Shown here: piece after piece, positions 1,727 to 15,931 of the stretch
How the letters are laid out: each line of letters starts with the position of its first letter
Position numbering within the stretch: the stretch's first letter is position 1
Assembly: GCA_934569425.1 (NCBI GenBank)
Contig: CAKTKM010000014.1
Location: forward strand, 1 to 19,366
Length of the DNA stretch: 19,366 nt
Direction: 5' to 3'
Origin: an uncultured Oscillospiraceae bacterium
GTDB lineage: Bacteria > Bacillota > Clostridia > Oscillospirales > Oscillospiraceae
The notes under the pieces: generated by a model
Databases searched by the model: none
The model's input: the letters and a program-made list of their open reading frames with translations, nothing else
Told to the model about the DNA's origin: nothing
Position numbers and translations under genes: made by a program

Positions 1727-3502
1727 GTGGAGCTTCAGGTTCAGGAGCTTGCTTCTCCCATCAAAAAAGACGGCACCGACAGCGCCAACCAAGAGGCCGC
1801 CGCCATTCTGGACAACGCCCGGAAGCAGGCGGCCGCCATCGTGGCCGACGCGAAGGCGGAGGCGGACAAGCTGCGCAGCGATGCCAAGGCGGAGATCGAG
1901 GTATTCAAAAACAGCGCCCGGCTGGACGGCGACACGCTGATCCTCTCCGGACGGGACACGCAGGAGCAGGATGCTGTGACCGGCGCACTCAGCCGGAACC
2001 ACTACGAGCGGGACATGGCGTCAGAGGTGTTCCAGGGCGGGGTGGCGCTGGTGGACGCGGACGATCTGAAGCTATACAACGACATATACGGCCACGCCGC
2101 GGGTGACAGGGTGCTGTGGACGCTGGCGGAGACGATCCGGCGGGAGCTGGGGGATCGCGGTTCGCTGGTACGGTACGGCGGCGATGAATTTCTGGTGCTG
2201 GCCCCCGGCGCGGAGGAGGACGTTTTTACAGCCATGCTGGAGACGGTGCGGCAGCGGATACGCGGCGCGGTGATACCGGGCTGTGGCGACGACATCCGGC
2301 TTACCGTCAGCATCGGGGCGGTGATGGCGCGGCAGGAGACGGTGTCAATGGTGGCATGGCGCGCCGACCGGCTGATGTACCGCGCCAAACGGACAAAGGA
2401 CATGCTGGTGACAGAGCGGGATGCGGCGCACCCGGACGACGGCGAGACGGCGCAGCGGATCCTGATCGTGGACGACGCGCCGCTGAACCGCGCCATACTG
2501 CGGGATATGCTGAGGGAGAACTTTCAGGTGCTGGAGGCCGAGGGCGGCACGGCGTGCTTCGCCCTGCTGGAGAAATACGGCACGGACATCGCGCTGGTGT
2601 TGCTGGATCTAATCATGCCGGAGATGAACGGTATTCAGGTACTGAGGGAGATGCGGCAGCGGGAACTGTTGGACAGCATTCCGGTGATCATGATTACGGC
2701 GGACACCTCGAGAGAGAGTATACGGCAGGCCTATGAACTGGGTGTGTCGGACTACATTGAGCGGCCGTTTGATATTCAGGTGGTGCAGCGGCGTGTGATG
2801 AACACGGTGAAGCTGTATGCGCGGCAGCGGCGGCTGGCGGCGGTACTGGCGCAGCAGAGCAGGACACAGGAGCGGCTCAACGGAATGATGACGGATATGC
2901 TGGCGCGTATCGTGGGCTGCCGCAACGGCGAGGGAACCGGACACGCACGGCGGATTCGGCAGCTGACGGAGCTGCTGCTGGAACGGCTGACGGAAAAAAC
3001 CGGCAAATACTGGCTGACCCTGCAGGATTGCAGACGGATCGGAAGCGCGGCTATGTTCCACGATATTGGAAAGCTGGTCATTCCGGACGAGATCCTCAAC
3101 AAGCCGGGAAAGCTGACACCGGAGGAATTCCACCGTATGAAGGAGCACTGCGTCATCGGCGAGTCGATCCTGCGGAGCATGAAGGACTACCAGGGTGAGC
3201 CGCTGCTGGAGACGGCGGCGGAAATCTGCCGGTGGCACCACGAGCGGATCGATGGCAGGGGCTATCCGGACGGCCTGAAGGGAGCGGAGATCCCCATTGC
3301 GGCACAGGCAGCGGGACTGGCGGACGCGTTCGACGCGCTGGTGAGCCGACGGGCCTATAAGGCACCGTACACCTTTGAAAAGGCTATGGAGATGATCATG
3401 GCGGGCGATTGCGGCGCTTTCAACCCGCTGCTGCTGGAATGCCTGCGGGAATTGCAGAATACACTGCGCCGGGAGGTTTACGGCGGGGAGGCGGGACAAT
3501 GA
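1727..3502 (+). CDS. GGDEF-REC-HD-GYP c-di-GMP enzyme (diguanylate cyclase / response regulator / phosphodiesterase)
   Basis: The protein has 591 residues from GTG 1727, chosen because AGAAGG (1713-1718) sits 8 nt upstream; GTG 1718 in the same frame has no spacing for a ribosome site. Residues ~1-65 are Ala/Glu/Lys-rich coiled coil resembling the N-terminus of V-type ATPase subunit E. A GGDEF domain follows (~80-225) with DAVTGALSRN, the metal-site VDADDLKLYND and intact GGDEF at 151-155; no RxxD inhibitory site is seen before it. A receiver domain (~244-365) has the acidic pair VDD, phospho-Asp 294 (LLDLIMPEMNG) and ITADTS, but Arg346 replaces the usual Lys in ERPFD. An HD-GYP domain (~385-575) has HD at 445-446 and HHERIDGRGYPDG with GYP at 512-514. 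Both making and breaking c-di-GMP are therefore possible, gated by phosphorylation. It is cytoplasmic, first in the operon, and its stop overlaps the next start (ATGA). Confidence 0.93.
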   Translation: MELQVQELASPIKKDGTDSANQEAAAILDNARKQAAAIVADAKAEADKLRSDAKAEIEVFKNSARLDGDTLILSGRDTQEQDAVTGALSRNHYERDMASEVFQGGVALVDADDLKLYNDIYGHAAGDRVLWTLAETIRRELGDRGSLVRYGGDEFLVLAPGAEEDVFTAMLETVRQRIRGAVIPGCGDDIRLTVSIGAVMARQETVSMVAWRADRLMYRAKRTKDMLVTERDAAHPDDGETAQRILIVDDAPLNRAILRDMLRENFQVLEAEGGTACFALLEKYGTDIALVLLDLIMPEMNGIQVLREMRQRELLDSIPVIMITADTSRESIRQAYELGVSDYIERPFDIQVVQRRVMNTVKLYARQRRLAAVLAQQSRTQERLNGMMTDMLARIVGCRNGEGTGHARRIRQLTELLLERLTEKTGKYWLTLQDCRRIGSAAMFHDIGKLVIPDEILNKPGKLTPEEFHRMKEHCVIGESILRSMKDYQGEPLLETAAEICRWHHERIDGRGYPDGLKGAEIPIAAQAAGLADAFDALVSRRAYKAPYTFEKAMEMIMAGDCGAFNPLLLECLRELQNTLRREVYGGEAGQ

Positions 3503-4302
3503 AGCACAAGTGGAGAAGCTGGCTGGCGGCGGCACTGGCGCTGTGTGCGCTGGTGCTGTGCGGCTGCGGCCGGCAGGAGCCGGAGGAAGCGCTGCCGCAG
3601 CTGGTTATCGGCAGCGACAACTATGAGCCATATTTCTATCTGGATGAGGACGGCACCTTTGTCGGTATTGATGTGGAGATCGCCACGGAGGCGTGCCGGC
3701 GCATGGGCTATGCGCCAGCGCTGCGGAAAATCGACTGGCAGAACAAGGACGTGCTGTTGGAGCAGGGTGAGGTGGACTGCCTGTGGGGAAGCTTTTCCAT
3801 GAATGGCCGCGAGGAGCGCTACCGCTGGGCGGGGCCATATATGTGCAGCCGTCAGGTCGTGGTGGTACGCAGTGACAGCAGCATCTACACGCTCAGCGAT
3901 CTGAACGGCAAGCGCATTGCCGTCCAGAACAGTTCCAAGCCGGAGGAACTGTTTCTGCGCCATCAGGTAGCGGGGGTGGAGCAGATAGAAAGCATATACA
4001 GCCTCGCCAGCATGGACGCGGTATTCGCAGCATTGAACAGGGGCTATGTGGACGCTTGCGCCGGCCACGAAACCGCCTACCAGGATTTCATGACCGTTCA
4101 CTTGGGGAGCTGTCGGATCCTGGAGCAGGAGCTGCTGCGGGCGAACCTTGGCGTGGCATTTCATAAGGACGATCAGCGGGGGCTTGACGAGCAGCTGAGC
4201 GCGGTGCTGCGGGAGATGGACGAGGACGGCACAATCGCGGGCATTCTGGCGGAATACGGCGTGAACGCAGAAGCGGCGCTGGCGGAGTTGCGGCATGAGT
4301 AA
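3499..4302 (+). CDS. Family 3 solute-binding lipoprotein (amino-acid type), likely sensor subunit
   Basis: The protein has 267 residues. ATG 3499 overlaps the previous stop by 4 bp, and the frame's upstream extension is shadowed by the preceding gene. The N-terminus is a lipoprotein signal: KHKWR, a hydrophobic stretch, and lipobox LCGC with Cys23 as the lipidated residue. The mature part fits the SBP_bac_3 Venus-flytrap fold: LVIGSDNYEPYFYLDEDGTF, GIDVEIATEACRRMGY, VDCLWGSFSMNGREER, then YTLSDLNGKRIAVQNSS and a C-terminal LAEYGV. Such proteins bind polar amino acids outside the membrane. No ABC permease or ATPase is next to it. It sits between a c-di-GMP enzyme and a kinase, so I infer that it presents ligand to the kinase rather than to a transporter. 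It is a separate-chain counterpart of the SBP domains fused to EvgS/BvgS-type kinases. Confidence 0.9.
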   Translation: MKHKWRSWLAAALALCALVLCGCGRQEPEEALPQLVIGSDNYEPYFYLDEDGTFVGIDVEIATEACRRMGYAPALRKIDWQNKDVLLEQGEVDCLWGSFSMNGREERYRWAGPYMCSRQVVVVRSDSSIYTLSDLNGKRIAVQNSSKPEELFLRHQVAGVEQIESIYSLASMDAVFAALNRGYVDACAGHETAYQDFMTVHLGSCRILEQELLRANLGVAFHKDDQRGLDEQLSAVLREMDEDGTIAGILAEYGVNAEAALAELRHE

Positions 4303-6394
4303 AAAAAGATTTTCCAACAAAACAGCGGCGCTGCTGATGCTGGTCATCGGCATCGTTCTTCTGGCCACGGTGTCTCGGGTGGGAGCGTCCGTCAGTATGC
4401 ACAACGCGCAGGAGACGACGGATCGCACCCTGCAGTACCTCAAGCGCCAGTGTATTGCCTATCGGGAGATCATGACCTCCGATGAGGTAAAGAGCCTTAT
4501 GCGCCTGACAGAGCAGGCCGTAGAGCTGGCTACGGTCGCAACTGAAATGCACGGCGACGGGTATCTGTCCAGATATGCCCGGCGGCAGCGGATAACCGAC
4601 GCGGTGATACTGGACGGCGAGCTGAAGCCGGAGTACGTCTACGGCGGCGGAGAATGGAGCAGCCTTTATACCAGCACCTCCGTCAGCTGCATATTGGACT
4701 GGCCCGAGAAAATATACACCCGGCGTCTGACAAAGGACGGAGCAATCTATGATGTTGCGGCGGTGGCACGGCAGGACGCACCGGGGCTCGTCTTCTGTGC
4801 CAGAGCGCGGGACAGCAATGAGTTGACCGCCTATCAGACCTCACTGGAGAGACTGCTGGCAGGATATGAGTCGTCGTTGAGCGACCGGGCCTATTCGTAT
4901 ATCACCGACGGCGTGACCGTCATCGGGAGCAGCAATGCCGCCCAGCAGGGAAGGCCGGTGGAGGAGATCCCTCTGATCCGCGGGCTGGAAGCGGCAGAGG
5001 GCTGCAGCAACATCACTGCGGTGCGGGACGACGGCCTGTATTTCGGCGCGTGCGGACTGTACGGGGATTTCCGGCTGTATGTGTTTCTGTCGGCGGACTC
5101 CGTGTTTGCACATAGCCGCAACGCGGTCATTATGACCTTCGGCGTCTATATGCTGCTGATGATGGTAAGCATGCTGATACTGCTGCGCACCGATCGGGAT
5201 CGCAAGCAGCAGGAGCGGAACTATCAGCATCAGCTGGAGGAGGAAGTGGCCCGTGCCACCCGTGCGGATCAGGCCAAGACCGATTTCCTGCGCAGCATGA
5301 GCCACGACATCCGCACGCCCATCAACATCATTATGGGTATGCTGGAGATCATCGGACGGAGCCCCGACGACCGGGCGCTGGTGCAAAGCTGCCGCGAGAA
5401 GGCACAGACCGCCGCCCGATACCTGCTGGCACTGGTGAACGATGTGCTGACGCTGAACCGTCTGGCGGACGAGAGCACGGCGTCCGTATCCATGTCCTAC
5501 CGCCTATCGGCGGAGCTGGAGGAGGTCATGACGCTGGCGCAGGCACAGGCAGAGGCGCAGGGCGTCACGCTGAAGATGCAGGAGCTGGCGCTGGAATGCG
5601 ACGAGTTTCAGGGCAACCCGCTGTATCTGCGGCAGGTGGGGCAGAACGTCATCGGCAATGCCATCCGCTACAGTCTCCCCGGCGGCGAGGTGCGCTGCCG
5701 CTTCCGCACAAGGCGCGAGGCCGACGGCAAGTGCCGCCTGACCTTCCTGTGCGAGGATGACGGCGTGGGTATGAGCAGCGAATTCCAGCAGCATATGTTT
5801 GAGGCCTTCGCGCAGGAGAACACCGCCCGCTCCATTGGCGGCGGCGTGGGGCTGGGGCTGGCTGTGGTGAAGCGCGTTGTGGACAGTCTGGGCGGCACCA
5901 TTCAGGTGGACAGTGTCAAAGGCAAAGGCACCCGGGTTGAGATAAACGTTTTTCTGCCCCCCAGCGCCGCGCCGCAGATGGCGGAGGATACCCTGCCCAC
6001 CATCGCCGGCATGCATATTTTAGTGGTGGAGGACAACCAGCTGAACAGGGAAATCGCCGTATATCTGCTGGAGGAGGCGGGGGCGCGGGTGACGCAGGCG
6101 CAGGACGGCCGCGAAGCGGTGCAGGTTTTTGCCGACTCGGCGCAGTGGGAGCTGGACGCGATACTGATAGATATGATGATGCCGGTGATGGACGGTCTGG
6201 AGGCCACCCGCGCCATCCGCTCCATGCGGCGCTGCGACAGTGACATCCCCATCCTTGCCATGACCGCCAACCTGTTTGACGAGGACGTTGCGGCCTGTCT
6301 GGAGGCAGGCATGGACGGCCACGTTCCCAAGCCGTTGAACGCGGCGCAAATGATCCGCGCCATCGCGGAGTGTATCGGGAGAAAACGACCATGA
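4295..6394 (+). CDS. Membrane hybrid sensor histidine kinase (HisKA-HATPase-REC)
   Basis: The protein has 699 residues; its start overlaps the lipoprotein stop by 8 bp. One membrane helix (~11-32) and a second (~275-298) bracket an extracytoplasmic sensor region of about 240 residues that I cannot assign to a family. A short coiled coil follows, then HisKA with phospho-His 337 in MSHDIRTPINIIMG. The HATPase domain has the N box NVIGNAIRYS (~450), G1 DDGVGM (~489) and G2 GGGVGLGLAV (~515). A C-terminal receiver (from ~573) has HILVVEDNQLNRE, phospho-Asp 626 (LIDMMMPVMDG), MTAN and Lys679 (GHVPKPL). All catalytic positions look intact. The next gene is an Hpt protein, so the kinase's own receiver probably hands phosphate to it. 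The neighbouring binding protein is the likely ligand-bearing partner. Confidence 0.95.
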   Translation: MSKKRFSNKTAALLMLVIGIVLLATVSRVGASVSMHNAQETTDRTLQYLKRQCIAYREIMTSDEVKSLMRLTEQAVELATVATEMHGDGYLSRYARRQRITDAVILDGELKPEYVYGGGEWSSLYTSTSVSCILDWPEKIYTRRLTKDGAIYDVAAVARQDAPGLVFCARARDSNELTAYQTSLERLLAGYESSLSDRAYSYITDGVTVIGSSNAAQQGRPVEEIPLIRGLEAAEGCSNITAVRDDGLYFGACGLYGDFRLYVFLSADSVFAHSRNAVIMTFGVYMLLMMVSMLILLRTDRDRKQQERNYQHQLEEEVARATRADQAKTDFLRSMSHDIRTPINIIMGMLEIIGRSPDDRALVQSCREKAQTAARYLLALVNDVLTLNRLADESTASVSMSYRLSAELEEVMTLAQAQAEAQGVTLKMQELALECDEFQGNPLYLRQVGQNVIGNAIRYSLPGGEVRCRFRTRREADGKCRLTFLCEDDGVGMSSEFQQHMFEAFAQENTARSIGGGVGLGLAVVKRVVDSLGGTIQVDSVKGKGTRVEINVFLPPSAAPQMAEDTLPTIAGMHILVVEDNQLNREIAVYLLEEAGARVTQAQDGREAVQVFADSAQWELDAILIDMMMPVMDGLEATRAIRSMRRCDSDIPILAMTANLFDEDVAACLEAGMDGHVPKPLNAAQMIRAIAECIGRKRP

Positions 6395-6738
6395 CACTGG
6401 AGGAATTTTTCCGGCTGACCGGCGGCGATGCCGCCGGCACTGTTTCACGGCTGGGCGGCGCCGCAGCCGCGATGCGCTTTCTGCGGCTGTTCCCGGTGGA
6501 CGGCTCCTTTTCCGCGTTGACCGCCGCGCTGGCGTGGGGCGACGCCGAGGCCGCGTTTCGGGCGGCGCACACCCTGAAGGGCGTGGCGGCCAACCTGGGG
6601 TTGGAGCGTCTTCGGGCGCTGGCCTCGGACATGACGGAGTGCCTGCGGGCGGGCGACAGCGCCGGTGCGCAGGCGCTGCTCCCATCGGCGGAGGCGGCCT
6701 ACCGGCAGGTGCTGGACGGGCTGGACAGGCTGGGATAG
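6391..6738 (+). CDS. Hpt phosphotransfer protein
   Basis: The protein has 115 residues from ATG 6391, overlapping the kinase stop by 4 bp (ATGA). It is an Ala-rich four-helix Hpt protein with the phospho-His motif AAHTLKGVAANLGL (His60). There is no signal or membrane segment, so it acts in the cytoplasm as a free shuttle. It would take phosphate from Asp626 of the hybrid kinase and pass it to a downstream receiver. The only complete unattached receiver nearby is Asp294 of the GGDEF-REC-HD-GYP protein at the head of this operon. It is the last gene of the operon; I see no strong intrinsic terminator between its stop and the next promoter. An upstream GTG (6370) in frame is possible but unneeded. 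Confidence 0.92.
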   Translation: MTLEEFFRLTGGDAAGTVSRLGGAAAAMRFLRLFPVDGSFSALTAALAWGDAEAAFRAAHTLKGVAANLGLERLRALASDMTECLRAGDSAGAQALLPSAEAAYRQVLDGLDRLG

Positions 6739-6787
6739 CCGTCCGGCAGAAATGGGGGGAGCCTGTAAAAAATTCGTCATTTTTTTG

Positions 6788-6819
6788 AAATTTTGTCTTG
6801 ACGAAGAAAGACAAAATTT
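6788..6819. promoter_or_regulatory. Perfect 12-bp inverted repeat over the -35 region (candidate operator)
   Basis: AAATTTTGTCTT (6788-6799) and AAGACAAAATTT (6808-6819) are exact reverse complements separated by 8 bp. The dyad covers the -35 box and most of the spacer of the promoter at 6798-6827, a typical repressor position. It could instead form an RNA hairpin in read-through transcripts from the Hpt side, but no U run follows it. Confidence 0.55.
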
Positions 6820-6827
6820 GCTATAAT
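6798..6827 (+). promoter_or_regulatory. Sigma-A-type promoter of the riboswitch/fibre operon
   Basis: TTGACG (6798-6803) and TATAAT (6822-6827) are separated by 18 bp, giving 11 of 12 consensus bases. Transcription would start near 6834, just ahead of the riboswitch aptamer. The -35 box is embedded in a 12-bp inverted repeat. Confidence 0.85.
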
Positions 6828-6839
6828 GATTTTCAGTCA

Positions 6840-6922
6840 TTAAATAAATTTGGCAAATCAGTCGAAAGGCTGAGACGCAAAGCTATGGTGTCTAAACAGC
6901 GTAGGCTGCAGGATCGACCGGC
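6840..6922 (+). promoter_or_regulatory. c-di-GMP-I (GEMM-I) riboswitch aptamer
   Basis: The conserved GEMM-I landmarks occur in order. They are TGGCAAA (6851-6857), hairpin TCAGTC-GAAA-GGCTGA (6858-6873) with the GAAA tetraloop, GACGCAAAGC (6874-6883), TCTAAAC (6891-6897), and a 3' segment GGCTGCAGGATCGACC (6904-6919) comparable to the family's GG-TGCC-AGGTT-CC end. Aligned on the Vibrio Vc2 aptamer, the position of G20 is G6852 and that of A47 is A6879, so it is predicted to read c-di-GMP rather than cGAMP (G20-to-A variants). The 5' edge and the P1 stem are not certain. The 3' edge overlaps the left arm of the following terminator, so binding probably prevents termination (ON switch). This lies directly after an operon encoding a c-di-GMP enzyme. 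Confidence 0.9.
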
Positions 6923-6972
6923 TGCAAAACGAACGCACCCGATGGGTGCGCACTTTTTGCAGCCGGTTTTTT
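6917..6972 (+). terminator. Riboswitch expression-platform terminator
   Basis: ACCGGCTGCAAAA (6917-6929) pairs perfectly with TTTTGCAGCCGGT (6955-6967). An inner CGCACCC/GGGTGCG stem (6934-6940/6944-6950) lies inside, and T6 follows (6967-6972). The first bases of the left arm are also the 3' end of the aptamer (ATCGACC). The two folds are therefore mutually exclusive, and no separate antiterminator strand is evident. Confidence 0.9.
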
Positions 6973-7022
6973 GTTTTCTTTAATGGAGCAAAGACAGGCT
7001 TACGGGAAAGAGAGGCAGACAA

Positions 7023-7631
7023 GTGGAGAAAAAACAGACGGGAGCCACGGCGCTGAACATTGCCGGTGCTGTGCTGTGCGTGGTGTTCGGTTTCTTTCTG
7101 GTGTGCAACCTTATTATCATCGTGAAGGGGACGCTGCGTCCGGAAACCCCTCCCACGGTGCTGGGCGTGGCGCCCATGGTGGTGCTGTCCGGCTCCATGA
7201 GCGGAACGGCGGAGGATCACATTGAGGTGGGTGATCTGATCTTTACCCGGCAGGCCGACACAGACGACCTGCAGGTGGGCGATGTGATCAGCTTTATGGA
7301 CGGCGGCGTTGTGGTGACCCACCGGATCGTGTCCATCAGCGCCGACAGAGGGGAATTTATCACCAAGGGCGACGCCAACAACACCGCCGACGAGCCGGTG
7401 GAGGCCCAGCAGATCATCGGGCGGTATGCAGGCCGTATCCCCAAGCTGGGGGACTTCGCCCTGTTCCTGCAAAGGCCGCTGGGTATGGTGATCTTCATCG
7501 GCGTTCCGGTGTGCGCCTTTGTGGTGTGGGATATTCTGCGGCGGCGCAAGGAGGCCCGCGCCGATGACGCGGAAAAGGAGCAGCTGCGCCGGGAGCTGGA
7601 GCGGCTGAAGGCGGAAAAAAACGGCGAATGA
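7023..7631 (+). CDS. sipW: SipW-type signal peptidase I (S26B)
   Basis: The protein has 202 residues from GTG 7023, with AGAGG (7011-7015) 7 nt upstream; it is the first gene after the riboswitch terminator. An N-terminal membrane helix (~12-34) is followed by the catalytic Ser box VVLSGSM (Ser58) and VVVTHRI with His100. His in place of the usual bacterial Lys defines the ER/SipW branch. KGDANNTAD forms the conserved Asp box. A second helix (~150-170) and a charged cytoplasmic tail (KEQLRRELERLKAEK) follow, a typical two-helix topology. SipW enzymes process TasA, TapA and camelysin-type fibre proteins, and two such proteins are encoded downstream. The gene symbol marks the type rather than proven orthology to the Bacillus gene. 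Confidence 0.93.
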   Translation: MEKKQTGATALNIAGAVLCVVFGFFLVCNLIIIVKGTLRPETPPTVLGVAPMVVLSGSMSGTAEDHIEVGDLIFTRQADTDDLQVGDVISFMDGGVVVTHRIVSISADRGEFITKGDANNTADEPVEAQQIIGRYAGRIPKLGDFALFLQRPLGMVIFIGVPVCAFVVWDILRRRKEARADDAEKEQLRRELERLKAEKNGE

Positions 7632-7643
7632 CAATGTTTTCCC

Positions 7644-7660
7644 GCGCCGCTTCGCGGCGC
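7644..7660 (+). other. Intercistronic RNA hairpin after sipW
   Basis: GCGCCGC-TTC-GCGGCGC forms a 7-bp GC stem with no U run. A second short stem CCGGC/GCCGG follows at 7694-7709. This is more likely an mRNA processing or stability element separating the peptidase from the fibre-protein message than a terminator. Confidence 0.5.
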
Positions 7661-7728
7661 AGCACATAAAACAGACATAAGGGAAAGGCAGCCCCGGCGG
7701 ATGAGCCGGAGCAGAATGGAGGAACTGT

Positions 7729-8472
7729 ATGAAAACAAAGAAAAACGGAAAGACCCTGCGGGTGGCCGGCCTGCTGCTGGCACTGGTACTGGTGACAAGC
7801 TGCTTCGTGGGCGGCACGTTTGCTAAGTATGTGACCAGCGATGGTGGTATGGACGAGGCCCGTGTTGCCAAGTTCGGCGTGACGGTAACGGCTACCGGCG
7901 ATGTGTTCGCCAAGGAGTATGATGCTAAGGATCCGGAACTTCTGGACTATGCAGGCCATGTAATCACCAAGTCTGTGATTTCTTCAGACGATTATAAGCG
8001 CGTGGCTCCTGGTACTAAAAAGGATAATGCGCTGACGGTGTCCGTGACCGGCACTCCTGAGGTGGCCGTGGAGGTCAAGTATGAGGCGCATGTGACGTTT
8101 ACGACGGATCACCTCAATCCCGTGGACAATTGGAAGGATGCAGATGGAAAATACTATTGCCCGCTGGTCATTACTGTTAACGACACTAAATACGACGGGT
8201 TGAAATATAATAGTTCAGATGAGTTTAAAGCTGCTGTTGAGAGTGCTATCAATAATCTGACAAAAAAATATCCGGCAAACACCGATTTGAGTGCTTCTGC
8301 AAGCAAGGGTGTGGCGATTTCCTGGGAGTGGCCCTTTGAAGTCACGAAGACTGATGGCAAAGTGAATCATGATATTGACGTGAAGGACACCTATCTGGGC
8401 GATCAGGCCGCTGAAGGAAAAGCTGCCACCGTGGGTATCGTGGTAGCCACCACTGTTACCCAGATTGACTGA
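7729..8472 (+). CDS. TasA/camelysin-like SipW-dependent fibre protein
   Basis: The protein has 247 residues from ATG 7729, with GGAGGA (7718-7723) as a strong ribosome site. The N-terminus is KTKKNGKTLR, a hydrophobic helix (~12-28), then GGTFAKYVTSDGGMDEARVAKFGVTVT. This is the motif of SipW-dependent secreted proteins, with cleavage expected around TFA-KYV (residues 30-35). The mature part is beta-rich with TVSVTGTPEVAVEVKYEAHVTF and ends IVVATTVTQID. It has no anchor, so it is likely released or assembled into fibres. It sits directly downstream of a SipW peptidase. Bases ~8100-8340 are visibly richer in A+T than flanking genes, suggesting a variable surface segment. A strong hairpin follows it. 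It may be the major subunit; the assignment to the TasA/camelysin superfamily rests on the signal motif and context. Confidence 0.8.
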   Translation: MKTKKNGKTLRVAGLLLALVLVTSCFVGGTFAKYVTSDGGMDEARVAKFGVTVTATGDVFAKEYDAKDPELLDYAGHVITKSVISSDDYKRVAPGTKKDNALTVSVTGTPEVAVEVKYEAHVTFTTDHLNPVDNWKDADGKYYCPLVITVNDTKYDGLKYNSSDEFKAAVESAINNLTKKYPANTDLSASASKGVAISWEWPFEVTKTDGKVNHDIDVKDTYLGDQAAEGKAATVGIVVATTVTQID

Positions 8473-8490
8473 TTTACCTCTCCATATGGG

Positions 8491-8555: not shown

Positions 8556-8637
8556 AGTTCCGATATATAGGCGGACTGTCCACATTCGGGACAGGCGGCC
8601 TTTGTAGCGGAACAGAGGAAGAAAAGGAGGGGCAACA

Positions 8638-9393
8638 ATGGCCTTTGCGCGAACAACAAGCCGGCTGGAGGCGGTACTGGCGCTGCTTCTCGCGCAGCTG
8701 CTCCTGCTTCCTGCGGCGCTGGGCATGACCTATGCCAGCGGCGGCACCCGTCCGGAGCATGTGCTGACCTATACCACCGGCCGTCTCACATGGGACAGCG
8801 CCACGGCCACAGACCCGCAGGGCGCGGCGCGGCTGGCACTGTTCCGCAGGGACTACGACAACGTTGCCTCTGCCGACAGGCAGCGGGTGGTGGCGCCCGG
8901 CACATCGGGAGAGACGGTAGTGCGCCTGAAAAACGATACGAACCGCACGGTGTATTACACCGCCGTGCTGTATGAGAAGAAAACCGACCTGCGGATTCCG
9001 GTGACGGCGGCGCTGGAGGGCGAGGGATTTGCCGACACGGAGCGCTACTCCCTGCCGGAGGGCGTGGAGCAGGCACAGGTGGTTCGGGCGGTCAGCGGCT
9101 CCGTGGACGGCGGTCAGCGGCAGGATTTCTCCGTGCTGTGGTCGTGGCTGTTTGAGGTGAGCGCCGAGCAGGACGCGGCGGACACGGCGCTGGGCAACGC
9201 CGCCACAGACAGGGAGGAGCTGGGCTTTTATCTGACCGTCACCGATCAGGGCGGCTCCGGCGGAGGGGTGATCACTCCGGTGGAGAATCCCAAAACGGGC
9301 GACAGCTTCTCCTGCGTGTGGTATGTGGCGGCGCTGGGCGCGGCGGTATCGCTGGTGGTCATCACAGTCAAAAGGAGATCGGAACGTGATTAA
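8638..9393 (+). CDS. Secreted beta-rich protein with NPKTGD wall-sorting signal
   Basis: The protein has 251 residues from ATG 8638 behind an excellent ribosome site (AAGGAGGGG). It has a signal helix (~8-30, LEAVLALLLAQLLLLPAALG). The ~185-residue exported part has a TasA-like layout: a VAPGTSGETVVRLKND strand region, YYTAVLYEKK, and WSWLFEVSAEQDAADTALGN. The last of these resembles the WEWPFEV and DTYLGDQA stretch of the preceding TasA-like protein. A Gly/Ser spacer leads to NPKTGD (217-222), then a hydrophobic helix and KRRSERD, which is an LPXTG-type sorting signal. I infer a sortase-attached base or tip linking the fibre to the wall. The only sortase-like gene in the window (minus strand, 16056-16635) is broken, so a sortase elsewhere would be needed. 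The last 8 bp overlap the next gene. Confidence 0.82.
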   Translation: MAFARTTSRLEAVLALLLAQLLLLPAALGMTYASGGTRPEHVLTYTTGRLTWDSATATDPQGAARLALFRRDYDNVASADRQRVVAPGTSGETVVRLKNDTNRTVYYTAVLYEKKTDLRIPVTAALEGEGFADTERYSLPEGVEQAQVVRAVSGSVDGGQRQDFSVLWSWLFEVSAEQDAADTALGNAATDREELGFYLTVTDQGGSGGGVITPVENPKTGDSFSCVWYVAALGAAVSLVVITVKRRSERD

Positions 9394-9943
9394 AAAAATC
9401 GGACGCGCCGTCATCAGGACGGTGCAGGGGGTGATCGTGGCGGTGCTGGCGCTGATAGTGCTGGTCAACCTCTACACACTGGCAGCGCGGACGCTGTTCC
9501 ATGTTGAGGATCCCGCCGTGCTGGGCTGCCGCGTGGCGGTGGTGCTGACGGGCAGTATGGAGCCGGCCATCCGCGCCGATGATCTGGTGCTTGTGCATCG
9601 TCAGGAGGACTACGACGCGGGCGACATCATTATGTTCCGCAGCGGCGGCAGCACCGTGACCCATCGGGTGACAGCGGTGACGGCGGAGGGCTATCGTACC
9701 AGAGGCGACGCCAACAACACCGAGGACGCGGACACGACACCGCCGGAGGCCGTTCTCGGCCGGGTGGTGCTTACGCTTCACGGCGCGGGCGCGGTGGTAC
9801 GGTTTCTGCGCACCCCGCTGGGGGCGCTGTGTCTGGTGCTGATGGTACCGGTTCTGGTGCTGGCGCCGGATATACTGCAAAAAAGACGGCGCAAGGAGGG
9901 AGAGAGCTATGGCGGCAGGCAATCGTCTGGAAAAACGGAATAG
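9386..9943 (+). CDS. Second SipW-type signal peptidase I (S26B)
   Basis: The protein has 185 residues from GTG 9386, with AAAGGAG (9371-9377) 8 nt upstream and an 8-bp overlap with the previous stop. Longer in-frame starts run back into the previous gene and are not needed. It has an N-terminal helix (~12-34), the Ser box VVLTGSMEPAI (Ser57), STVTHRV with His93, TRGDANNTEDAD, then a second helix (~148-168) and a basic tail. The Ser/His pair marks the SipW branch as in the first peptidase, but sequence between the motifs differs considerably. Its position just before a second TasA-like gene, which it overlaps by 35 bp, suggests each peptidase is dedicated to its neighbour. Confidence 0.92.
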   Translation: MIKKIGRAVIRTVQGVIVAVLALIVLVNLYTLAARTLFHVEDPAVLGCRVAVVLTGSMEPAIRADDLVLVHRQEDYDAGDIIMFRSGGSTVTHRVTAVTAEGYRTRGDANNTEDADTTPPEAVLGRVVLTLHGAGAVVRFLRTPLGALCLVLMVPVLVLAPDILQKRRRKEGESYGGRQSSGKTE

Positions 9944-10508
9944 GCGGGCTGTCCCTCTGCGGACATGGCTGCTGTATCTGGCCATTGCCACCTTTGCGCT
10001 TACAGGCGTTACCTTCTCCCGTTATGTGGCTTCCGCCTACTCGCAGGATACCGCGCGGGTGGCCGCCTTCGGCGACCTGACCGTCACCGACAGCGGCAAG
10101 GTGTTGCTCCAGCCCGGCGTGGCCGCGAGGAAGAATCTCACCGTCCGCTTTGAAAGCAGCGAGGTGGCCACCTACATATTCGTGGAGGTGCAGGCCAACG
10201 GCTGGACACGCGATGCGGACAACATCACCTATCGCTATCGTGACCCCGCCGGTATGACATGGCGCGTGGACGATGGCTGGCGCTTTCTGACGGACAACAA
10301 CAGCAATGCGGTTTATTACCGCGAGCTTGCGCCCAACACGGCGCTGGAGGCGGACATCATATCCGGCGGCACGGTGGAGGTATCGGAGAAAATGACCCGT
10401 TCGCAGCTGAAAGACCTGCCCGGCACGCTGAACATCGGCGTGCAGGCCGCCGCCGTACAGCGAGAGGGGACGGAAACGCCGCAGGCGGCATGGGAACGAA
10501 GCCGTTGA
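9909..10508 (+). CDS. Second TasA-like SipW-dependent protein
   Basis: The protein has 199 residues from ATG 9909 with AAGGAGGGAGAG upstream. The gene begins inside the 3' end of the second peptidase gene (35-bp overlap, different frame). The N-terminus is very basic (NRLEKRNRRAVPLR), then a helix (~18-34) and GVTFSRYVASAYSQDTARVA followed by AFG. This is the same pattern as the first TasA-like protein, reading TF-[AS]-[KR]-YV, then [DE]-x-ARVA-[AK]-FG. The mature part is beta-rich (KNLTVRFESSEVATYIFVEV, YYRELAPNTALEADIISGGT, LNIGVQAAAVQ) and ends without an anchor. It probably is a minor or accessory fibre subunit processed by the preceding peptidase. Sixteen bases separate it from the giant adhesin gene. 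Confidence 0.8.
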   Translation: MAAGNRLEKRNRRAVPLRTWLLYLAIATFALTGVTFSRYVASAYSQDTARVAAFGDLTVTDSGKVLLQPGVAARKNLTVRFESSEVATYIFVEVQANGWTRDADNITYRYRDPAGMTWRVDDGWRFLTDNNSNAVYYRELAPNTALEADIISGGTVEVSEKMTRSQLKDLPGTLNIGVQAAAVQREGTETPQAAWERSR

Positions 10509-10524
10509 AAGGGGGTAACGCCGT

Positions 10525-13500
10525 ATGGCGAAGAGACATACCGACAAGAAAACCACAGGCCTTCGGCGGCTGCTTTCGCTGCTGCTGGGGCTTGTGCTGT
10601 TGATAGAACTGCTGCCCGGCGGGCTGATGGCGGTAAGCGACGCGGCGGAGGCCGTGACCGTCACGGCCGACGGCACAAGGGCGTCACAGATCACGCTGCC
10701 GCAGTCCGGCCGCGTGACACTGGAGGCTTCCTGCGAGACGGGCGAAACGGCGTTTCAGTGGCAGCTCCAGCTGGACGGCGACTGGGTAGACATTTACAAC
10801 GCCGAAGGCGCGGCGCTGACGCTGACCTATGCCATGATCGCGCCGGCACTGGAAAACGGCAGCGCCTCGGTGCGCTGTGCCGCAGGCAGCGAGGCCGCAT
10901 CCCAGCCGGTCGTGGTGACGGTTTCCTATGACGCGGAGACGGACAGCGCCGCCCTGAACCGGCAGAGGAACGCCCAGACGCAGACCGGAGACCAGACCGG
11001 TACCAAGCCCCACCGCGCCCCAAGGCGCACAGACGGCACCGCATCGGATTTCATCGAGGTGCGTATCTCCTATCTGGACGCGGTGTCGAAGCTGCCGATC
11101 TACACCGGCTTTTCAGCCACCATTGAACGAGGCGCGGCCTATGAGCAGACGGTGCTTTCTCCCACCTATCTGGGCTATGCGCCCTACTGGAACGCGGCGG
11201 ATCCGGACAGCACCGACTCCACCGCCGCCTTGGACAGCGCGCAGCATCTGCTTTTGTCCGTTCCGGCGAGATACACCGGTGATAGCTATACGGTGAATGT
11301 GTACTATAAGGCCATTCAGGTGCCTTACGCCGCACGCTATTTCTTCCAGAACATCAACGATGATATGTATACGGAGGATGTGAACTTCTATCGTCAGGGC
11401 AGCGCCCTGACAGGCACCATCATCGCCAATGATGCTTTGGAGCTGGACGAGAATGACATCGTGGGCTTCACAAAGCTGTATCATTATCCGGAGGCGGTGG
11501 CGGCGGACGGCTCCACGGTGTTTGAGTGCTACTACGACCGCAATTACTACCAGCTGAAGCTGGACGCCAACGGCGGCTATGGCTCGGAGCATATCTATGC
11601 CCGATACGGCACCCCCTTTGTCGCCGCCACCCCTACCCAACATGGCTACACATTTGCCGGTTGGGACAAGCTGGACGCCAACGGCAAGGGCGATGGCATC
11701 GCCGACAAGCTGCCCGCCACCGTTCCGGCGGAGAACGCCCAGTACAAGGCGCTGTGGGTCAGCGCCGACACCACCTACACCGCCGTCTACTGGCTGCAAA
11801 ACGCCGAACACACCAACAAGTACGACTACAAGGGCAGCGAGAAGCGCGACGCCAGGGCTGGCGAGGTTGTCACCGGCGATAAGAATTGGCTCACGGCGGA
11901 CACCAATATCTGCGGCCTTGCCGAGAGCAAGAGCCACAACCACTCCAACGCCTGCAAGCCCGATATTCTCCGCCACACCATATTTGAAAAGGCGGATAAG
12001 GACGTCACCGTCAAGGGTGACGGCTCCACCGTGGTGAACGTCTACTACACCCGCAGGCAATATACCCTGCGGTTCTACTACGCCAAGGAGTACGTTCCGG
12101 CTTACGACACGGTCAAGACCGACAACCACGACACCACGCCTGTCTACTCCGTGGTGGGCGGCAGCACGTACAACTTTGGCTATCATCTGGATACGGGGTC
12201 GGGTTCACGCCCGCGCCCGAAGGACAAAGACGGCAATATAGTCAACGATGTCGAGAGCCTGCTGTATAACGTCCCCAACGAAGAGTGGGGCAAGGTGACG
12301 GCGCTGCCCGAGATCCCGACGCAGCTCGAAGGCACGAACTATGAATACACCACAGGCACCTATCCCGCTGACGACTATAACGATAAGGGCGACCGGTTCT
12401 ATTATCTGGAATTTACCGTGCCCTACGGCGCGGATCTCACGCACCTGTGGCCTACCTACGAGGTGTTCGGCAGGGTACCCCTGACGGACGCGGAGAAAAA
12501 CAGCCATAATAGCGGGAACGGCGGTACAAGTTATCTGGAAAACGACGGCTGGGGCAACTACGCCTACTTCTCCGGCTGGAACGGCGAGTACAACGTGAAG
12601 TACACGAAGGATCACAAAAACGCCACCATCAAGTGCCTGTACCCTGTTCTCAACGAGGATCTGCTGTATGACAAAAGCTTCATCGACCAGTGGGGCGACC
12701 CGGACACAGTGAACTTCCTGGGCTTCTTCGACAACGGCGCAAGGAATACATGGAACACCCCCCACCAATGGATCTATAAGCTTTATATTGAGGTGCTGGC
12801 TGATGAGAAGGATGCCGGACACTACGACGAGGAGCGCGTGGTGGACGGCGTGACCCGGTACTATAAGCTCTACGACACCGTCTACGCCAATGACGACAAC
12901 AAGGATGTCGCCCACCAGACCGACCCGCCCCTGCCGGGCTTCACCTCCATGCGGGAAAAACCGGGCGGCTACTTCAAATCCGGAGTGACAACGCTGGAGG
13001 ACAAGCGCGAATCCCGCACCGTCCACTTCTACTACAACCGGAACACCTACACCCTCGTAGCGCAGAACTACGATCAGGTCGACCAGTATGAGGGGGTACC
13101 GTATCAGGACAGTCTGGACAGATGGATGGGCGGCTGGCTGAAACCGGTCAAATACCCGGAAACACTGGAAAAGGACGCGTACATGGAGGGTGGCTGGTAC
13201 ACCTCACCAGACTGCTTCACGGGCAGTGAATACGTCTACGGCAGCACTATGCCGGATCACGACATCAGCCTGTATGTGAAGTGGGTGCCGGTGGAGCGCA
13301 AGGTAAGGCTGTTCCGCAACCAGAAGGATATGGAGACATACCAGGCCACCGGCGGTGAAAGTCTCATCTGGGAGGAAAAGACGGTAAGCCACGGCACCCC
13401 GCTGCAGGAGACACTGGAGCCTGAGGATCCATCGGGACACAACTACAGCTTCACCGGATGGTTCTACATAAAAAACGGCAAGCGCGTGGCCTTTACCCCC

Positions 13501-15330
13501 ATGGATACAGCGGTTAAGGAGGATCTGCTGGTTTATGCCGAGTGGAGCAATCATACGGCGCAGCCCTACCTGATCCGCTATGTGTTGGAGGAAAACGCCA
13601 CAGACGAGTGGAAAACGCTGCTGGACAAGGCGGCACTGTATAGTCCGGCGGACGGCAAGGCCTACACCGTTACCAACGCCTCCGGTGAAAGCCGGACATA
13701 CATCTACTACGCCGGTGAGGACGGCGGCTACCATCAGCAGATCGCGGCGGACACCCGCGGCTATGCCAATCAGGGTACCACCCGTACCTTCTTTCCCAAG
13801 GCCGGAGCCCCTTATAACCAGCTGTATGACGCCTTTAACAACACCGGCTACTATCCCACGCTGGCCAGCCATTCCATCACCATGGAGGAGGATCCCAATG
13901 TATCCTCTCCCACCGTCAACGTGTTCACCTTCCGGTATGTGTATGTGGCGCAGGTAGACTATACGGTGGAGTACCGCTATCGGGACAGTGGAGAGTTGAT
14001 CGGCTCTGCCCCCGGCGGCGGTATAGTCAAAAAATCCACCAGCAAGGCGGTGGTTACGGAGCGGTTTTCCGTGGTGAAGGACTATATGCCGGATGCCTTT
14101 TACAAGCGGCTGGTTCTGGCTGTGGTCAAGGGAAACGATGGTACCTATGTGGGTGCTTCTGACAATATCATCACCTTCTATTACACGAAGGATAAGCGCA
14201 ACGCCTTCTGCGCCGTTCACTACATGCTGCAAAACATTGACGCTACCTCGGACGAGCCGCTCCTCCAGCAGGACGGCACCTATTCCAACTACACCGAGTC
14301 CACTGTCTATACCGAGTGCATCGGCGAGATCGGCACCATGCTCAGCGTCAAGCCGCAGATCTTCGGCGGCTTCACTGTGTGCTCCGCCGCCACCGTCCGC
14401 GGGGGTGACAATACCACCAATACGGCGCAGGAAAACGATGGGAGCTTCTCCTTTGAGGTGCATGCGGAGGGTACGGAGCTGTATGTGTTCTACACCCGCA
14501 ACACCCAGAACTACACCGTCAGCTACCTCCGCTACGGCAGCGACCCCACCGCCCCGAAAGAGGGCGATGAGCTGCTTCCCACCGTGGGTTACACCGGCAA
14601 ATACGGCGCGGTGGTCACAGCAACGATGAAGAGCATTCCGGGCTTTCACTGCGTGTCTGCAGCAAGTCAGAGCATCGTTCTGCGTCCCCGTGACGAGCAG
14701 AACTACATCATATTCTACTATGAGGAACTGCAATATACGGCGGAGTACCGGATATGGAAATACGGCGGCGGTACGCTGAACCGGACGCAGGAGGTGGTGA
14801 AGGGTTCCACTGACTTTCTCGGTTCCACGCCGGCGGCAAGGGCTGGCTACGCCTTTACCGGCTGGTATCTGGACGCGGCATGTACCCAGCCGGTGGGAGA
14901 GAAGGGAAATGTGGCAACGGACACCGGCAAGCTTACTCCTCTGCGGGAGAAGCTCTCTCCCGCTCCCCAGAAGAACGTGTTCTATGCCCAGTTCAAGGCC
15001 ATATACGGCAACCTTACCATTGAAAGGAAAGGCACCGAGGATGAGGGCTATGGGAACGGAACCTACATCTACCGTGTGACTTCTCAGACGGATCCCTCAT
15101 TTGTTGTGGAGGTGACGGTGTCAAAGGGCGGCTGTACGACGATCCACGCACTGCCCTGCGGCACCTATACGGTGGAGCAGGTAAACGACTGGTCATGGCG
15201 CTATTCCGACTTCCGGCAAACAGTGGAAATCCAGAAGGATGAGAAAGCGACGGCGACATTTGATGGCGGGCCTGTCAAAGAAAACTGGCTCACAGGAAGC
15301 AGTCCCGCCATGGTAAATGAGAGGAGGTGA
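10525..15330 (+). CDS. Giant secreted adhesin with InlB-B/MucBP-like repeats
   Basis: The protein has 1601 residues from ATG 10525 (AAAGGGGG upstream). A classical Sec signal covers ~1-42 (basic, then LLSLLLGLVLLIELLPGG, AVSDAAEA). An Ig-like domain spans ~43-137 with two Cys, then a Gln/Arg/Thr-rich linker (~145-172). The rest is a chain of beta repeats joined by aromatic YY/FY-x-R-x-x-Y hinges. Listeria-Bacteroides (InlB-B) repeats lie at ~343-412 (LDANGG, YTFAGWDK), ~842-924, ~925-1009 (YSFTGWFY) and ~1403-1495 (YAFTGWYLD). A MucBP-like unit lies at ~1145-1215. The C-terminal ~1497-1580 resembles Cna-B/SpaA-type or DUF7601-like domains (GTYIYRVTSQTD, ALPCGTYTVEQV). It ends NWLTGSSPAMVNERR with no LPXTG signal or membrane helix. 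It likely is a surface adhesin held by the co-encoded fibre, or is secreted. Its stop lies inside the ribosome site of the next gene. Confidence 0.9.
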   Translation: MAKRHTDKKTTGLRRLLSLLLGLVLLIELLPGGLMAVSDAAEAVTVTADGTRASQITLPQSGRVTLEASCETGETAFQWQLQLDGDWVDIYNAEGAALTLTYAMIAPALENGSASVRCAAGSEAASQPVVVTVSYDAETDSAALNRQRNAQTQTGDQTGTKPHRAPRRTDGTASDFIEVRISYLDAVSKLPIYTGFSATIERGAAYEQTVLSPTYLGYAPYWNAADPDSTDSTAALDSAQHLLLSVPARYTGDSYTVNVYYKAIQVPYAARYFFQNINDDMYTEDVNFYRQGSALTGTIIANDALELDENDIVGFTKLYHYPEAVAADGSTVFECYYDRNYYQLKLDANGGYGSEHIYARYGTPFVAATPTQHGYTFAGWDKLDANGKGDGIADKLPATVPAENAQYKALWVSADTTYTAVYWLQNAEHTNKYDYKGSEKRDARAGEVVTGDKNWLTADTNICGLAESKSHNHSNACKPDILRHTIFEKADKDVTVKGDGSTVVNVYYTRRQYTLRFYYAKEYVPAYDTVKTDNHDTTPVYSVVGGSTYNFGYHLDTGSGSRPRPKDKDGNIVNDVESLLYNVPNEEWGKVTALPEIPTQLEGTNYEYTTGTYPADDYNDKGDRFYYLEFTVPYGADLTHLWPTYEVFGRVPLTDAEKNSHNSGNGGTSYLENDGWGNYAYFSGWNGEYNVKYTKDHKNATIKCLYPVLNEDLLYDKSFIDQWGDPDTVNFLGFFDNGARNTWNTPHQWIYKLYIEVLADEKDAGHYDEERVVDGVTRYYKLYDTVYANDDNKDVAHQTDPPLPGFTSMREKPGGYFKSGVTTLEDKRESRTVHFYYNRNTYTLVAQNYDQVDQYEGVPYQDSLDRWMGGWLKPVKYPETLEKDAYMEGGWYTSPDCFTGSEYVYGSTMPDHDISLYVKWVPVERKVRLFRNQKDMETYQATGGESLIWEEKTVSHGTPLQETLEPEDPSGHNYSFTGWFYIKNGKRVAFTPMDTAVKEDLLVYAEWSNHTAQPYLIRYVLEENATDEWKTLLDKAALYSPADGKAYTVTNASGESRTYIYYAGEDGGYHQQIAADTRGYANQGTTRTFFPKAGAPYNQLYDAFNNTGYYPTLASHSITMEEDPNVSSPTVNVFTFRYVYVAQVDYTVEYRYRDSGELIGSAPGGGIVKKSTSKAVVTERFSVVKDYMPDAFYKRLVLAVVKGNDGTYVGASDNIITFYYTKDKRNAFCAVHYMLQNIDATSDEPLLQQDGTYSNYTESTVYTECIGEIGTMLSVKPQIFGGFTVCSAATVRGGDNTTNTAQENDGSFSFEVHAEGTELYVFYTRNTQNYTVSYLRYGSDPTAPKEGDELLPTVGYTGKYGAVVTATMKSIPGFHCVSAASQSIVLRPRDEQNYIIFYYEELQYTAEYRIWKYGGGTLNRTQEVVKGSTDFLGSTPAARAGYAFTGWYLDAACTQPVGEKGNVATDTGKLTPLREKLSPAPQKNVFYAQFKAIYGNLTIERKGTEDEGYGNGTYIYRVTSQTDPSFVVEVTVSKGGCTTIHALPCGTYTVEQVNDWSWRYSDFRQTVEIQKDEKATATFDGGPVKENWLTGSSPAMVNERR

Positions 15331-15334
15331 GAGC

Positions 15335-15931
15335 ATGACGGCAAAAATGCAGTCTTCACGAAAAAAACGTCCGATTACGGTACTTTTGATCATTACCGCG
15401 ATTTTTGCGACAGTTTCGGTTGCGGCGGCCTTTATGCTCCGCAGGTCGGAAGCGCAGGTGGACTTTGCCCCTGCAGTGGTGTCCTGTGCTGTCCACGAAA
15501 AGGTCAACGGCGAGGTTCCGACCGGCGCCTTCGCCACTGGCGAGGTGAAGTCGGACATTACTGTGGAAAATGCCGGCAGCACTGCGGCGTACCTGCGGGT
15601 GCGGCTCAGCGCCTGTTGGGCGGACAGGGAGGGAAACATCACCGGAACCCCCTCGTCCCTGCCGGAGATCACGCCGCGTCAAAGCTGGCTGGATGCAGGA
15701 AATGGACTCTATTACTACGCTTTCGCCGTGGAGCCGGGGCAGCGTACCACGGTGCTGTGCGATCCGATGGAGCTGACCACCACAGCGGCGCCTGACGGCA
15801 CCGCTGTGTACCAGCGGGTAACGGTGCTTGCCGAGGCGGTACAGGCGCTGCCGGAGAAGGCGGCGCAGGAGGCATGGGGTGTGACCGTAACTAACGGGAT
15901 CATTACCGCAGTTCCAACCCCAGTTCCATAA
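15335..15931 (+). CDS. Membrane-anchored fibre-locus partner (TasA/BsaA-like beta protein)
   Basis: The protein has 198 residues from ATG 15335. Its ribosome site GAGGAGGTGA spans the stop codon of the giant adhesin (15328-15330), so translation is likely coupled. The N-terminus is KMQSSRKKRP then one hydrophobic helix (~14-34) ending AAFMLRRSEAQ. No SipW-type TF-x-[KR]-YV motif or sorting signal is present, so it may stay as a membrane anchor. The outer part has KSDITVENAGSTAAYLRVRL, WLDAGNGLYYYAFAVEPGQR and ITVLAEAVQA-like strands. These are typical of small beta-sandwich proteins found with SipW/TasA operons. I infer an assembly platform or terminal subunit. It is the last gene before the operon terminator. 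Confidence 0.75.
   Translation: MTAKMQSSRKKRPITVLLIITAIFATVSVAAAFMLRRSEAQVDFAPAVVSCAVHEKVNGEVPTGAFATGEVKSDITVENAGSTAAYLRVRLSACWADREGNITGTPSSLPEITPRQSWLDAGNGLYYYAFAVEPGQRTTVLCDPMELTTTAAPDGTAVYQRVTVLAEAVQALPEKAAQEAWGVTVTNGIITAVPTPVP

What the first reader, a model, noticed from the sequence alone, without database searches (positions are those of the whole stretch)
1727..15931. Contiguous c-di-GMP circuit: sensor phosphorelay, c-di-GMP enzyme, GEMM-I riboswitch and SipW/TasA/adhesin operon
The sequence shows a four-gene operon (GGDEF-REC-HD-GYP, binding lipoprotein, hybrid kinase, Hpt) followed at once by a c-di-GMP-I riboswitch-terminator and a seven-gene surface-fibre operon. Known biology: GGDEF and HD-GYP domains make and degrade c-di-GMP, GEMM-I binds it, and SipW processes TasA-type fibres. 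Inference: extracellular ligand is converted through phosphorelay and c-di-GMP into fibre expression in one transferable cassette. Having input, messenger enzyme, RNA sensor and output adjacent is unusual, and I do not know of a described example of this exact arrangement with two SipW/TasA pairs and an InlB-repeat adhesin.
Basis: partly seen in the sequence, partly recalled or inferred. Interest (0 to 1): 0.88.

Follow-up and report, generated by a model that had tools for sequence, protein, structure and literature searches.

The report
c-di-GMP relay beside riboswitch-controlled fibre genes
A bacterial gene block in which a sensing relay with a c-di-GMP enzyme sits directly before an RNA switch for c-di-GMP and a set of surface-fibre genes; every part is of a known type, the parts recur in other combinations in other bacteria, and the whole looks like one unusually complete version of a recurring layout rather than a new system.

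Summary
Four overlapping genes (GGDEF-REC-HD-GYP, binding lipoprotein, hybrid kinase, Hpt) are followed after about 100 bases by a strong c-di-GMP-I riboswitch (70.5 bits, E 2.6e-12) with a terminator and a seven-gene surface operon: 2 SipW-type peptidases, 4 TasA-like secreted proteins, 1 repeat adhesin. The aptamer's 3' strand is also the terminator's 5' arm, so an ON switch is predicted.

In other genomes (order of Oscillibacter valericigenes) the surface operon occurs without the relay beside it, as far as contigs reach: whole in G022, next to a recombinase gene and perfect inverted repeats (apparent invertible promoter); without the adhesin in G149, behind tandem c-di-GMP-I riboswitches. 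A similar relay ending in Hpt stands directly before a c-di-GMP-I riboswitch in G089, but with a polysaccharide-type operon behind it. A c-di-GMP enzyme gene lies directly upstream in 11 of 100 riboswitch loci. So the layout recurs and its ends look exchangeable; transfer as one cassette is not shown, and the window's closest relatives could not be reached. The enzyme's N-terminus is a piece of V-type ATPase subunit E. Whether the relay raises or lowers c-di-GMP cannot be told.

The parts
1649..1678 (+). promoter-like site upstream of the relay operon
   Evidence: TTGCAA-18-TATAAT, 10 of 12 matches; consensus match only
1727..3502 (+). GGDEF-REC-HD-GYP protein; residues 1-65 derive from V-type ATPase subunit E
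   Evidence: Pfam; motifs GGDEF, YND..GH..GD, HD.GK, HHE, GRGYP, receiver LLDLIMP; N-terminal fusion
3499..4302 (+). extracellular solute-binding lipoprotein, amino-acid-binder type
   Evidence: SBP_bac_3 E 1.2e-23; lipobox-like LCGC (sequence); most named relatives in the PDB are amino-acid binding proteins
4295..6394 (+). membrane hybrid histidine kinase (HisKA-HATPase-REC) with about 250-residue outer sensor between two hydrophobic helices
   Evidence: Pfam; best NCBIfam TorS 1.1e-73, LuxQ also matches, both below cut-off; hydrophobic stretches at 5 and 276
6391..6738 (+). Hpt phosphotransfer protein
   Evidence: PF01627 E 1.7e-13; AHTLKG motif
6788..6819 (.). perfect 12-nt inverted repeat overlapping the -35 element, operator-like
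6798..6827 (+). promoter-like site of the fibre operon
   Evidence: TTGACG-18-TATAAT with TG before it, 11 of 12 matches
6842..6929 (+). c-di-GMP-I (GEMM-I) riboswitch aptamer
   Evidence: RF01051, 70.5 bits, E 2.6e-12
6917..6973 (+). intrinsic terminator sharing 6917-6923 with the aptamer's last helix
   Evidence: folding with and without the aptamer forced; inverted repeat I3
7023..7631 (+). SipW-type signal peptidase 1
   Evidence: TIGR02228 82.1 bits, cut-off 51.85
7729..8472 (+). TasA-like secreted protein 1
   Evidence: GGTFAKY signal motif; relatives in 4 other genomes at 46-50%; no family model
8638..9393 (+). TasA-like protein 2 with NPKTG + hydrophobic helix + KRR tail, likely wall anchor
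   Evidence: weak srtB_target match, 14.6 bits, cut-off 18.15
9386..9943 (+). SipW-type signal peptidase 2
   Evidence: TIGR02228 80.3 bits, cut-off 51.85
9909..10508 (+). TasA-like secreted protein 3
   Evidence: gene order and relatives in L190, L195
10525..15330 (+). 1601-residue adhesin with Listeria-Bacteroides repeats
   Evidence: PF09479 E 2e-15; 1459 homologues at E<=0.001
15317..15931 (+). TasA/BsaA-like protein 4
   Evidence: TIGR04090 24.3 bits, below cut-off 60

Best explanation
This is a local c-di-GMP signalling block, probably of a bacterium of the class Clostridia. A secreted lipoprotein binds a small ligand, probably an amino acid, and sets the activity of the membrane hybrid kinase; phosphate passes from kinase His to its receiver Asp, to Hpt His, to the receiver of the GGDEF-REC-HD-GYP enzyme, which changes how much c-di-GMP is made or broken down. 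c-di-GMP binds the GEMM-I aptamer in the leader of the neighbouring operon. Binding holds the last aptamer helix together; its 3' strand is the 5' arm of the terminator, so the terminator cannot form and the two SipW-type peptidases, four TasA-like subunits and the adhesin are made. One TasA-like protein carries a wall-sorting-like tail and probably anchors the fibre. Shown: parts, order, motifs, mutually exclusive RNA folds (computed). Inferred: ligand, phosphate flow, sign of the enzyme, that this enzyme's c-di-GMP matters for this riboswitch, fibre assembly.
For: Domains, coupled genes and motifs. Riboswitch match; aptamer strand 6917-6923 reused by the terminator, -63.2 kcal/mol with the terminator and -46.2 with the aptamer forced. 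The same order hybrid kinase, REC-HD-GYP, Hpt, c-di-GMP-I riboswitch, matrix-type operon in L278 of genome G089, also with ON-type fold. c-di-GMP enzymes directly upstream of c-di-GMP-I riboswitches on the same strand in 11 of 100 loci, on the other strand within the same distance in 0 of 100. SipW-type genes downstream on the riboswitch strand in 3 of 100 loci, none elsewhere in those loci at E<=1e-5. Order GGDEF protein then binding protein is preserved in P0150, a fusion of the two, and enzyme and kinase relatives share two contig lengths, 8552 and 8588, among 120 listed each.
Against: c-di-GMP is diffusible and other enzymes may set its level. Both GGDEF and HD-GYP motifs are intact, so the sign is open. 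The enzyme lacks the N-terminal domain that 68 of 120 listed relatives carry and has a V-ATPase piece instead, so its control may be altered. No relay gene was seen beside the surface operon in any other genome reached, within the upstream sequence available. In C. difficile class I riboswitches are reported as uniformly 'off' (PMC6200980, abstract and passages), opposite to the sign predicted here. In 4 of the 11 loci with an enzyme directly upstream (L251, L263, L265, L307) the enzyme lies between two riboswitches and may itself be a riboswitch target. Adhesin contigs shared no length with enzyme or kinase contigs (120 listed each), weak evidence either way.
Confidence: 0.55

Rival explanations
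1. Neighbours, not a circuit. The surface operon is a riboswitch-controlled module that reads the cell-wide c-di-GMP pool; the relay beside it was brought there by a rearrangement and mainly regulates other processes.
For: In G149 the surface operon has tandem riboswitches and no relay in the 1.8 kb left upstream; a REC-HD-GYP-GGDEF enzyme with its Hpt lies about 110 kb away on the same contig. In eight fetched adhesin loci no Rfam family reached its gathering score. The relay operon starts in a rearranged region: MATE gene matched only in part, V-ATPase fusion.
Against: The same relay-Hpt-riboswitch order recurs in L278; enzymes sit directly before c-di-GMP-I riboswitches on the same strand in 11 of 100 loci against 0 of 100 on the opposite strand.
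Confidence: 0.35
2. OFF switch: c-di-GMP binding favours the terminator, so the surface operon is shut when c-di-GMP rises.
For: Class I c-di-GMP riboswitches in C. difficile are reported as uniformly OFF (PMC6200980, abstract; a discussion passage says all but one in the first transcript data).
Against: In this leader the terminator needs the aptamer's own 3' strand and is the more stable state without ligand; no separate antiterminator appeared in the folds made.
Confidence: 0.1

Closest known systems
Clostridium perfringens sipW-bsaABCRSD operon
   Same: SipW first, secreted subunits of which BsaA forms filaments, two-component genes needed for expression, a sortase gene next door (PMC7395162, abstract and passages)
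   Different: There the kinase and regulator genes are inside the operon; here a phosphorelay with a c-di-GMP enzyme precedes a riboswitch, with two SipW-type genes and a 1601-residue adhesin
C. difficile c-di-GMP riboswitch adhesin genes
   Same: c-di-GMP riboswitch upstream of surface adhesins (PMC6200980, abstract and passages)
   Different: There adhesins are under class II ON switches and class I are OFF; no adjoining relay is mentioned in the passages seen
c-di-GMP-I locus L278 in genome G089 of this search
   Same: hybrid kinase, REC-HD-GYP, Hpt, then c-di-GMP-I riboswitch with ON-type fold
   Different: output has CotH, glycosyltransferase family 2 and GGDEF-EAL genes and no SipW match; a separate GGDEF gene comes first; no match to the binding protein
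LuxP-LuxQ-LuxU and TorT-TorS relays; NspS-MbaA (all recalled)
   Same: binding protein plus hybrid kinase plus Hpt, or binding protein plus c-di-GMP enzyme; TorS and LuxQ models match the kinase
   Different: the end point here is a GGDEF-REC-HD-GYP enzyme next to a riboswitch; both models are below their cut-offs

Membership tests
c-di-GMP-I riboswitch (RF01051) | sequence and structure match above gathering score | tested here: met
   70.5 bits, cut-off 35, full model length
c-di-GMP-I riboswitch (RF01051) | binds c-di-GMP and controls expression | not testable with these tools
   needs in-line probing and transcription assay; fold competition only
HD-GYP / GGDEF enzymes | intact catalytic motifs | tested here: met
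   GGDEF at 151, HD.GK at 445, GRGYP at 510
GGDEF of c-di-GMP type rather than Hypr cGAMP type | Asp instead of Ser at the base-selecting position (PMC6456294, passages) | tested here: inconclusive
   YND..GH..GD has Asp, but the mapping of the position onto this motif is recalled, not aligned here
hybrid kinase phosphorelay | HisKA His, receiver Asp, Hpt His, output receiver Asp | tested here: met
   SMSHD, DMMMP, AHTLKG, LLDLIMP
SipW-type signal peptidase | match to TIGR02228 and to SipW equivalog NF046067 above cut-off | tested here: inconclusive
   TIGR02228 met by both; NF046067 76.4 and 74 bits, cut-off 190 not met
TasA / camelysin / BsaA fibre proteins | match to a family model above cut-off | tested here: not met
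   no such match for three; TIGR04090 24.3 bits against 60 for the fourth. Which TasA-type models the libraries hold was not checked. Fold not testable: single-sequence model of the first, pLDDT 34.8
transferable cassette | relay and surface operon together in other genomes, or mobility genes at the ends | tested here: not met

The most novel reading that the evidence does not exclude
Exchangeable front ends: in these Clostridia one SipW/TasA-like operon is driven by interchangeable control units - a sensing relay plus c-di-GMP-I riboswitch here, tandem riboswitches in G149, an apparent recombinase-driven invertible promoter in G022 - while the relay-Hpt-riboswitch unit is itself portable and drives a polysaccharide-type operon in G089. 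Evolution would thus swap deterministic and random control onto the same matrix output.
Probability: 0.35. Interest if true: 0.7.

Novelty: new variant of a known kind. Interest (0 to 1): 0.5.

Why it matters
If the link is real, a full path from outside ligand to second messenger to RNA switch to surface matrix fits into about 14 kb and could be moved as a unit into a laboratory host to measure signal, messenger and output together. The comparison with G022, G149 and G089 suggests that control units and matrix outputs are combined freely in these bacteria, which bears on how they decide when to stick.

Tried and rejected
The window's own genome is not held. Nearest relatives of the adhesin (66-68% identical, 119 of the 120 listed) could not be located: 394 genomes of the order (E<=1e-30) and 391 of the class (E<=1e-60) around Oscillibacter valericigenes gave at best 44%; four named genomes had no match; the families of G022 (12 genomes, only G022 itself) and of G070 (10 genomes) gave nothing more at E<=1e-100. 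Four scans of viral contigs gave no useful relative (nothing; only methionine adenosyltransferases of 44-55%). The genome scan with the GGDEF protein returned mostly distant receiver-domain matches. The contig-length comparison found two shared contigs for enzyme and kinase and none with the adhesin; it is not conclusive because only 120 of 1459, 5063 and 1307 homologues are listed. The structure of TasA-like protein 1 without an alignment was useless (pLDDT 34.8), so no fold search was made. A profile of five TasA-like-1 sequences found no relative among solved structures (best E 0.27); the adhesin found none at E<=0.01. I considered an assembly chimera for the N-terminal fusion and rejected it because P0121, 99% identical and standing for a cluster of 88 member sequences, carries it. 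Literature: the listings and abstract starts showed no paper on this arrangement; passages only were seen of PMC6456294, PMC8835794, PMC7395162 and PMC6200980, no paper was read in full, and most subscription papers are not held.
Full report
What is there. The window carries two same-strand operons. The first (1727-6738) has four overlapping genes: a GGDEF-REC-HD-GYP protein, a solute-binding lipoprotein, a membrane hybrid kinase and an Hpt protein. The motifs I searched for, of the phosphorelay and of both c-di-GMP activities, are present. The usual product-inhibition pattern before GGDEF (recalled as RxxD) is not seen by eye. The second operon begins about 60 bases after the Hpt stop with a promoter-like site at 6798-6827 (11 of 12 matches), the c-di-GMP-I riboswitch 6842-6929 (70.5 bits, E 2.6e-12) and a terminator, then seven genes: SipW, TasA-like 1, TasA-like 2, SipW, TasA-like 3, adhesin, TasA-like 4. 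The name TasA-like rests on gene company and the signal motif (GGTFAKY in the first); no family model was met. TasA-like 2 ends in NPKTG, a hydrophobic helix and KRR, a wall-sorting pattern; the sortase-B target model matches below cut-off.

How the switch should work. In the Rfam structure the aptamer's last helix uses 6917-6923 as its 3' strand; the same bases open the terminator 6917-6967, followed by U residues. The leader folds to -63.2 kcal/mol with the terminator; forcing the aptamer costs 17 kcal/mol and removes the lower terminator stem. The terminator's 3' arm is made after the aptamer: folded only to 6960 the RNA still shows the aptamer helices, to 6972 the terminator. Ligand binding in between would let polymerase pass: a predicted ON switch. 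A crude fold test found this ON-type layout in 29 of 117 c-di-GMP-I hits examined, among them L278, both hits of L282 and, with a poor U tail, L276; neither hit of L277 passed. C. difficile class I switches are reported OFF (PMC6200980, abstract and passages), so the sign needs the experiment. A perfect 12-base inverted repeat at 6788-6819 overlaps the -35 element, so a DNA-binding regulator may add a second layer.

Is the arrangement conserved? I searched 394 genomes of the order around Oscillibacter valericigenes; whether the window belongs to that order is not established. The adhesin matched in 12 of 394 at E<=1e-30; the c-di-GMP-I riboswitch in 103 of 394; the kinase in 0 of 394 at E<=1e-120, with two candidates per genome scored in the rows shown and no positive control. 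The seven-gene order is complete in G022 (L190) and partly seen in G305, G196, G215 and G177. In eight fetched adhesin loci no Rfam family reached its gathering score. I fetched 100 stretches around c-di-GMP-I hits, from 68 of the 103 positive genomes; they follow the hit list from the top, 117 hits were used, some tandem partners in the same stretches were left out, and the weaker listed and all unlisted hits were not fetched. Many stretches end early at contig ends. SipW-type peptidases lie downstream on the riboswitch strand in 3 of 100 (L276 and L277 of G149, L282 of G371) and nowhere else in those stretches at E<=1e-5 (a borderline match downstream in L279, E 0.0006, is not counted). L277 has two tandem riboswitches, then SipW, TasA-like 1, TasA-like 2, SipW, TasA-like 3 and a DUF285 repeat surface protein instead of the adhesin; the 1.8 kb left upstream to the contig end hold no relay gene. 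Five genomes with such operons were searched for the enzyme at E<=1e-20: G149 has a REC-HD-GYP-GGDEF protein (48% over residues 244-587) with an Hpt gene, about 110 kb from L277's operon; G371 has a weaker HD-GYP match; G022, G196 and G305 have none.

A second case of relay before riboswitch. L278 of genome G089 has a GGDEF protein, a hybrid kinase, REC-HD-GYP and Hpt, then a c-di-GMP-I riboswitch starting 8 bases after the Hpt stop, then CotH, a glycosidase-like protein (below cut-off), glycosyltransferase family 2 and GGDEF-EAL. It is the only one of the 100 loci with an Hpt match directly upstream (the Hpt profile was built from four sequences, L278's among them, so distant ones may be missed). 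More broadly a GGDEF or HD-GYP domain lies within 6 kb of the riboswitch in 24 of 100 loci; directly upstream (under 600 bases) on the same strand in 11 of 100, all in different genomes, on the opposite strand in 0 of 100. In four of the 11 (L251, L263, L265, L307) the enzyme lies between two riboswitches. So enzyme, RNA sensor and output side by side is a recurring layout; the full set with binding protein and fibre operon was seen only in the window.

Different control of the same output. G022 has no c-di-GMP-I match. Directly upstream of its fibre operon lie a tyrosine recombinase gene (PF00589, E 6e-26) and perfect 23-base inverted repeats: left copies at 5036-5058 and 5099-5121 and a right copy at 5353-5375 of L190; none was found upstream of the operon in L192, or in the 364-base stretch with the short upstream end of L195. 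Between them a TATAAT lies on the strand pointing away from the operon (read by eye; the promoter scan found none). I read this as an invertible promoter in its OFF orientation; inversion itself was not observed.

A rearranged enzyme. Bases 1728-1923 of the window are 75% identical over 196 bases to the start of a gene in O. valericigenes (L019) whose best family match is V-type ATP synthase subunit E (E 7.4e-30, below that model's cut-off), two genes before subunits A and B, which pass their cut-offs. Of 120 listed relatives of the enzyme only P0121 shares this start; 68 have another N-terminal domain and the other 51 are truncated or begin differently. Just upstream is a MATE reading frame matched only over residues 11-162 of 248. 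The relay operon therefore sits at a scar, which argues for a recent join at least on its left side.

Verdict. The parts and their order are real. The circuit is a good inference, strengthened by L278 and by the strand-biased association of enzymes with riboswitches, weakened by the lack of linkage in the genomes reached and by the altered enzyme.

Noticed in passing
window 1727-1923: The GGDEF-REC-HD-GYP gene begins with about 65 codons of a V-type ATPase subunit E gene (75% DNA identity to O. valericigenes), replacing the N-terminal domain of 68 of 120 relatives; also in P0121.
   Followed up: yes
L190:4169-5375 (G022): Tyrosine recombinase gene and perfect 23-base inverted repeats directly upstream of the same fibre operon, an apparent invertible promoter.
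   Followed up: partly
L278:3657-15916 (G089): Relay ending in Hpt directly before a c-di-GMP-I riboswitch and a polysaccharide-type operon with CotH, glycosyltransferase and EAL genes.
   Followed up: yes
window 6788-6819: Perfect 12-base inverted repeat across the -35 element of the riboswitch promoter, operator-like.
   Followed up: partly
window 16056-16635 (-): Reading frame that looks to me like a sortase but seems to change frame near 16270-16300; no Pfam or NCBIfam sortase match. It lies just past the fibre operon, whose TasA-like 2 has a sorting-like tail.
   Followed up: partly
window 931-1677: MATE transporter reading frame matched only in part, in a region of lower G+C.
   Followed up: no
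adhesin homologues P0002-P0120: Sister-group adhesins differ from each other by about 11% on the median, and 14 of 120 longest contigs are 8.3-8.5 kb and 4 are 14.9-15.0 kb long, perhaps a strain-variable site.
   Followed up: no
window 1-69: Rfam finds a tRNA cut by the window's start (61.7 bits); ARAGORN lists none.
   Followed up: no
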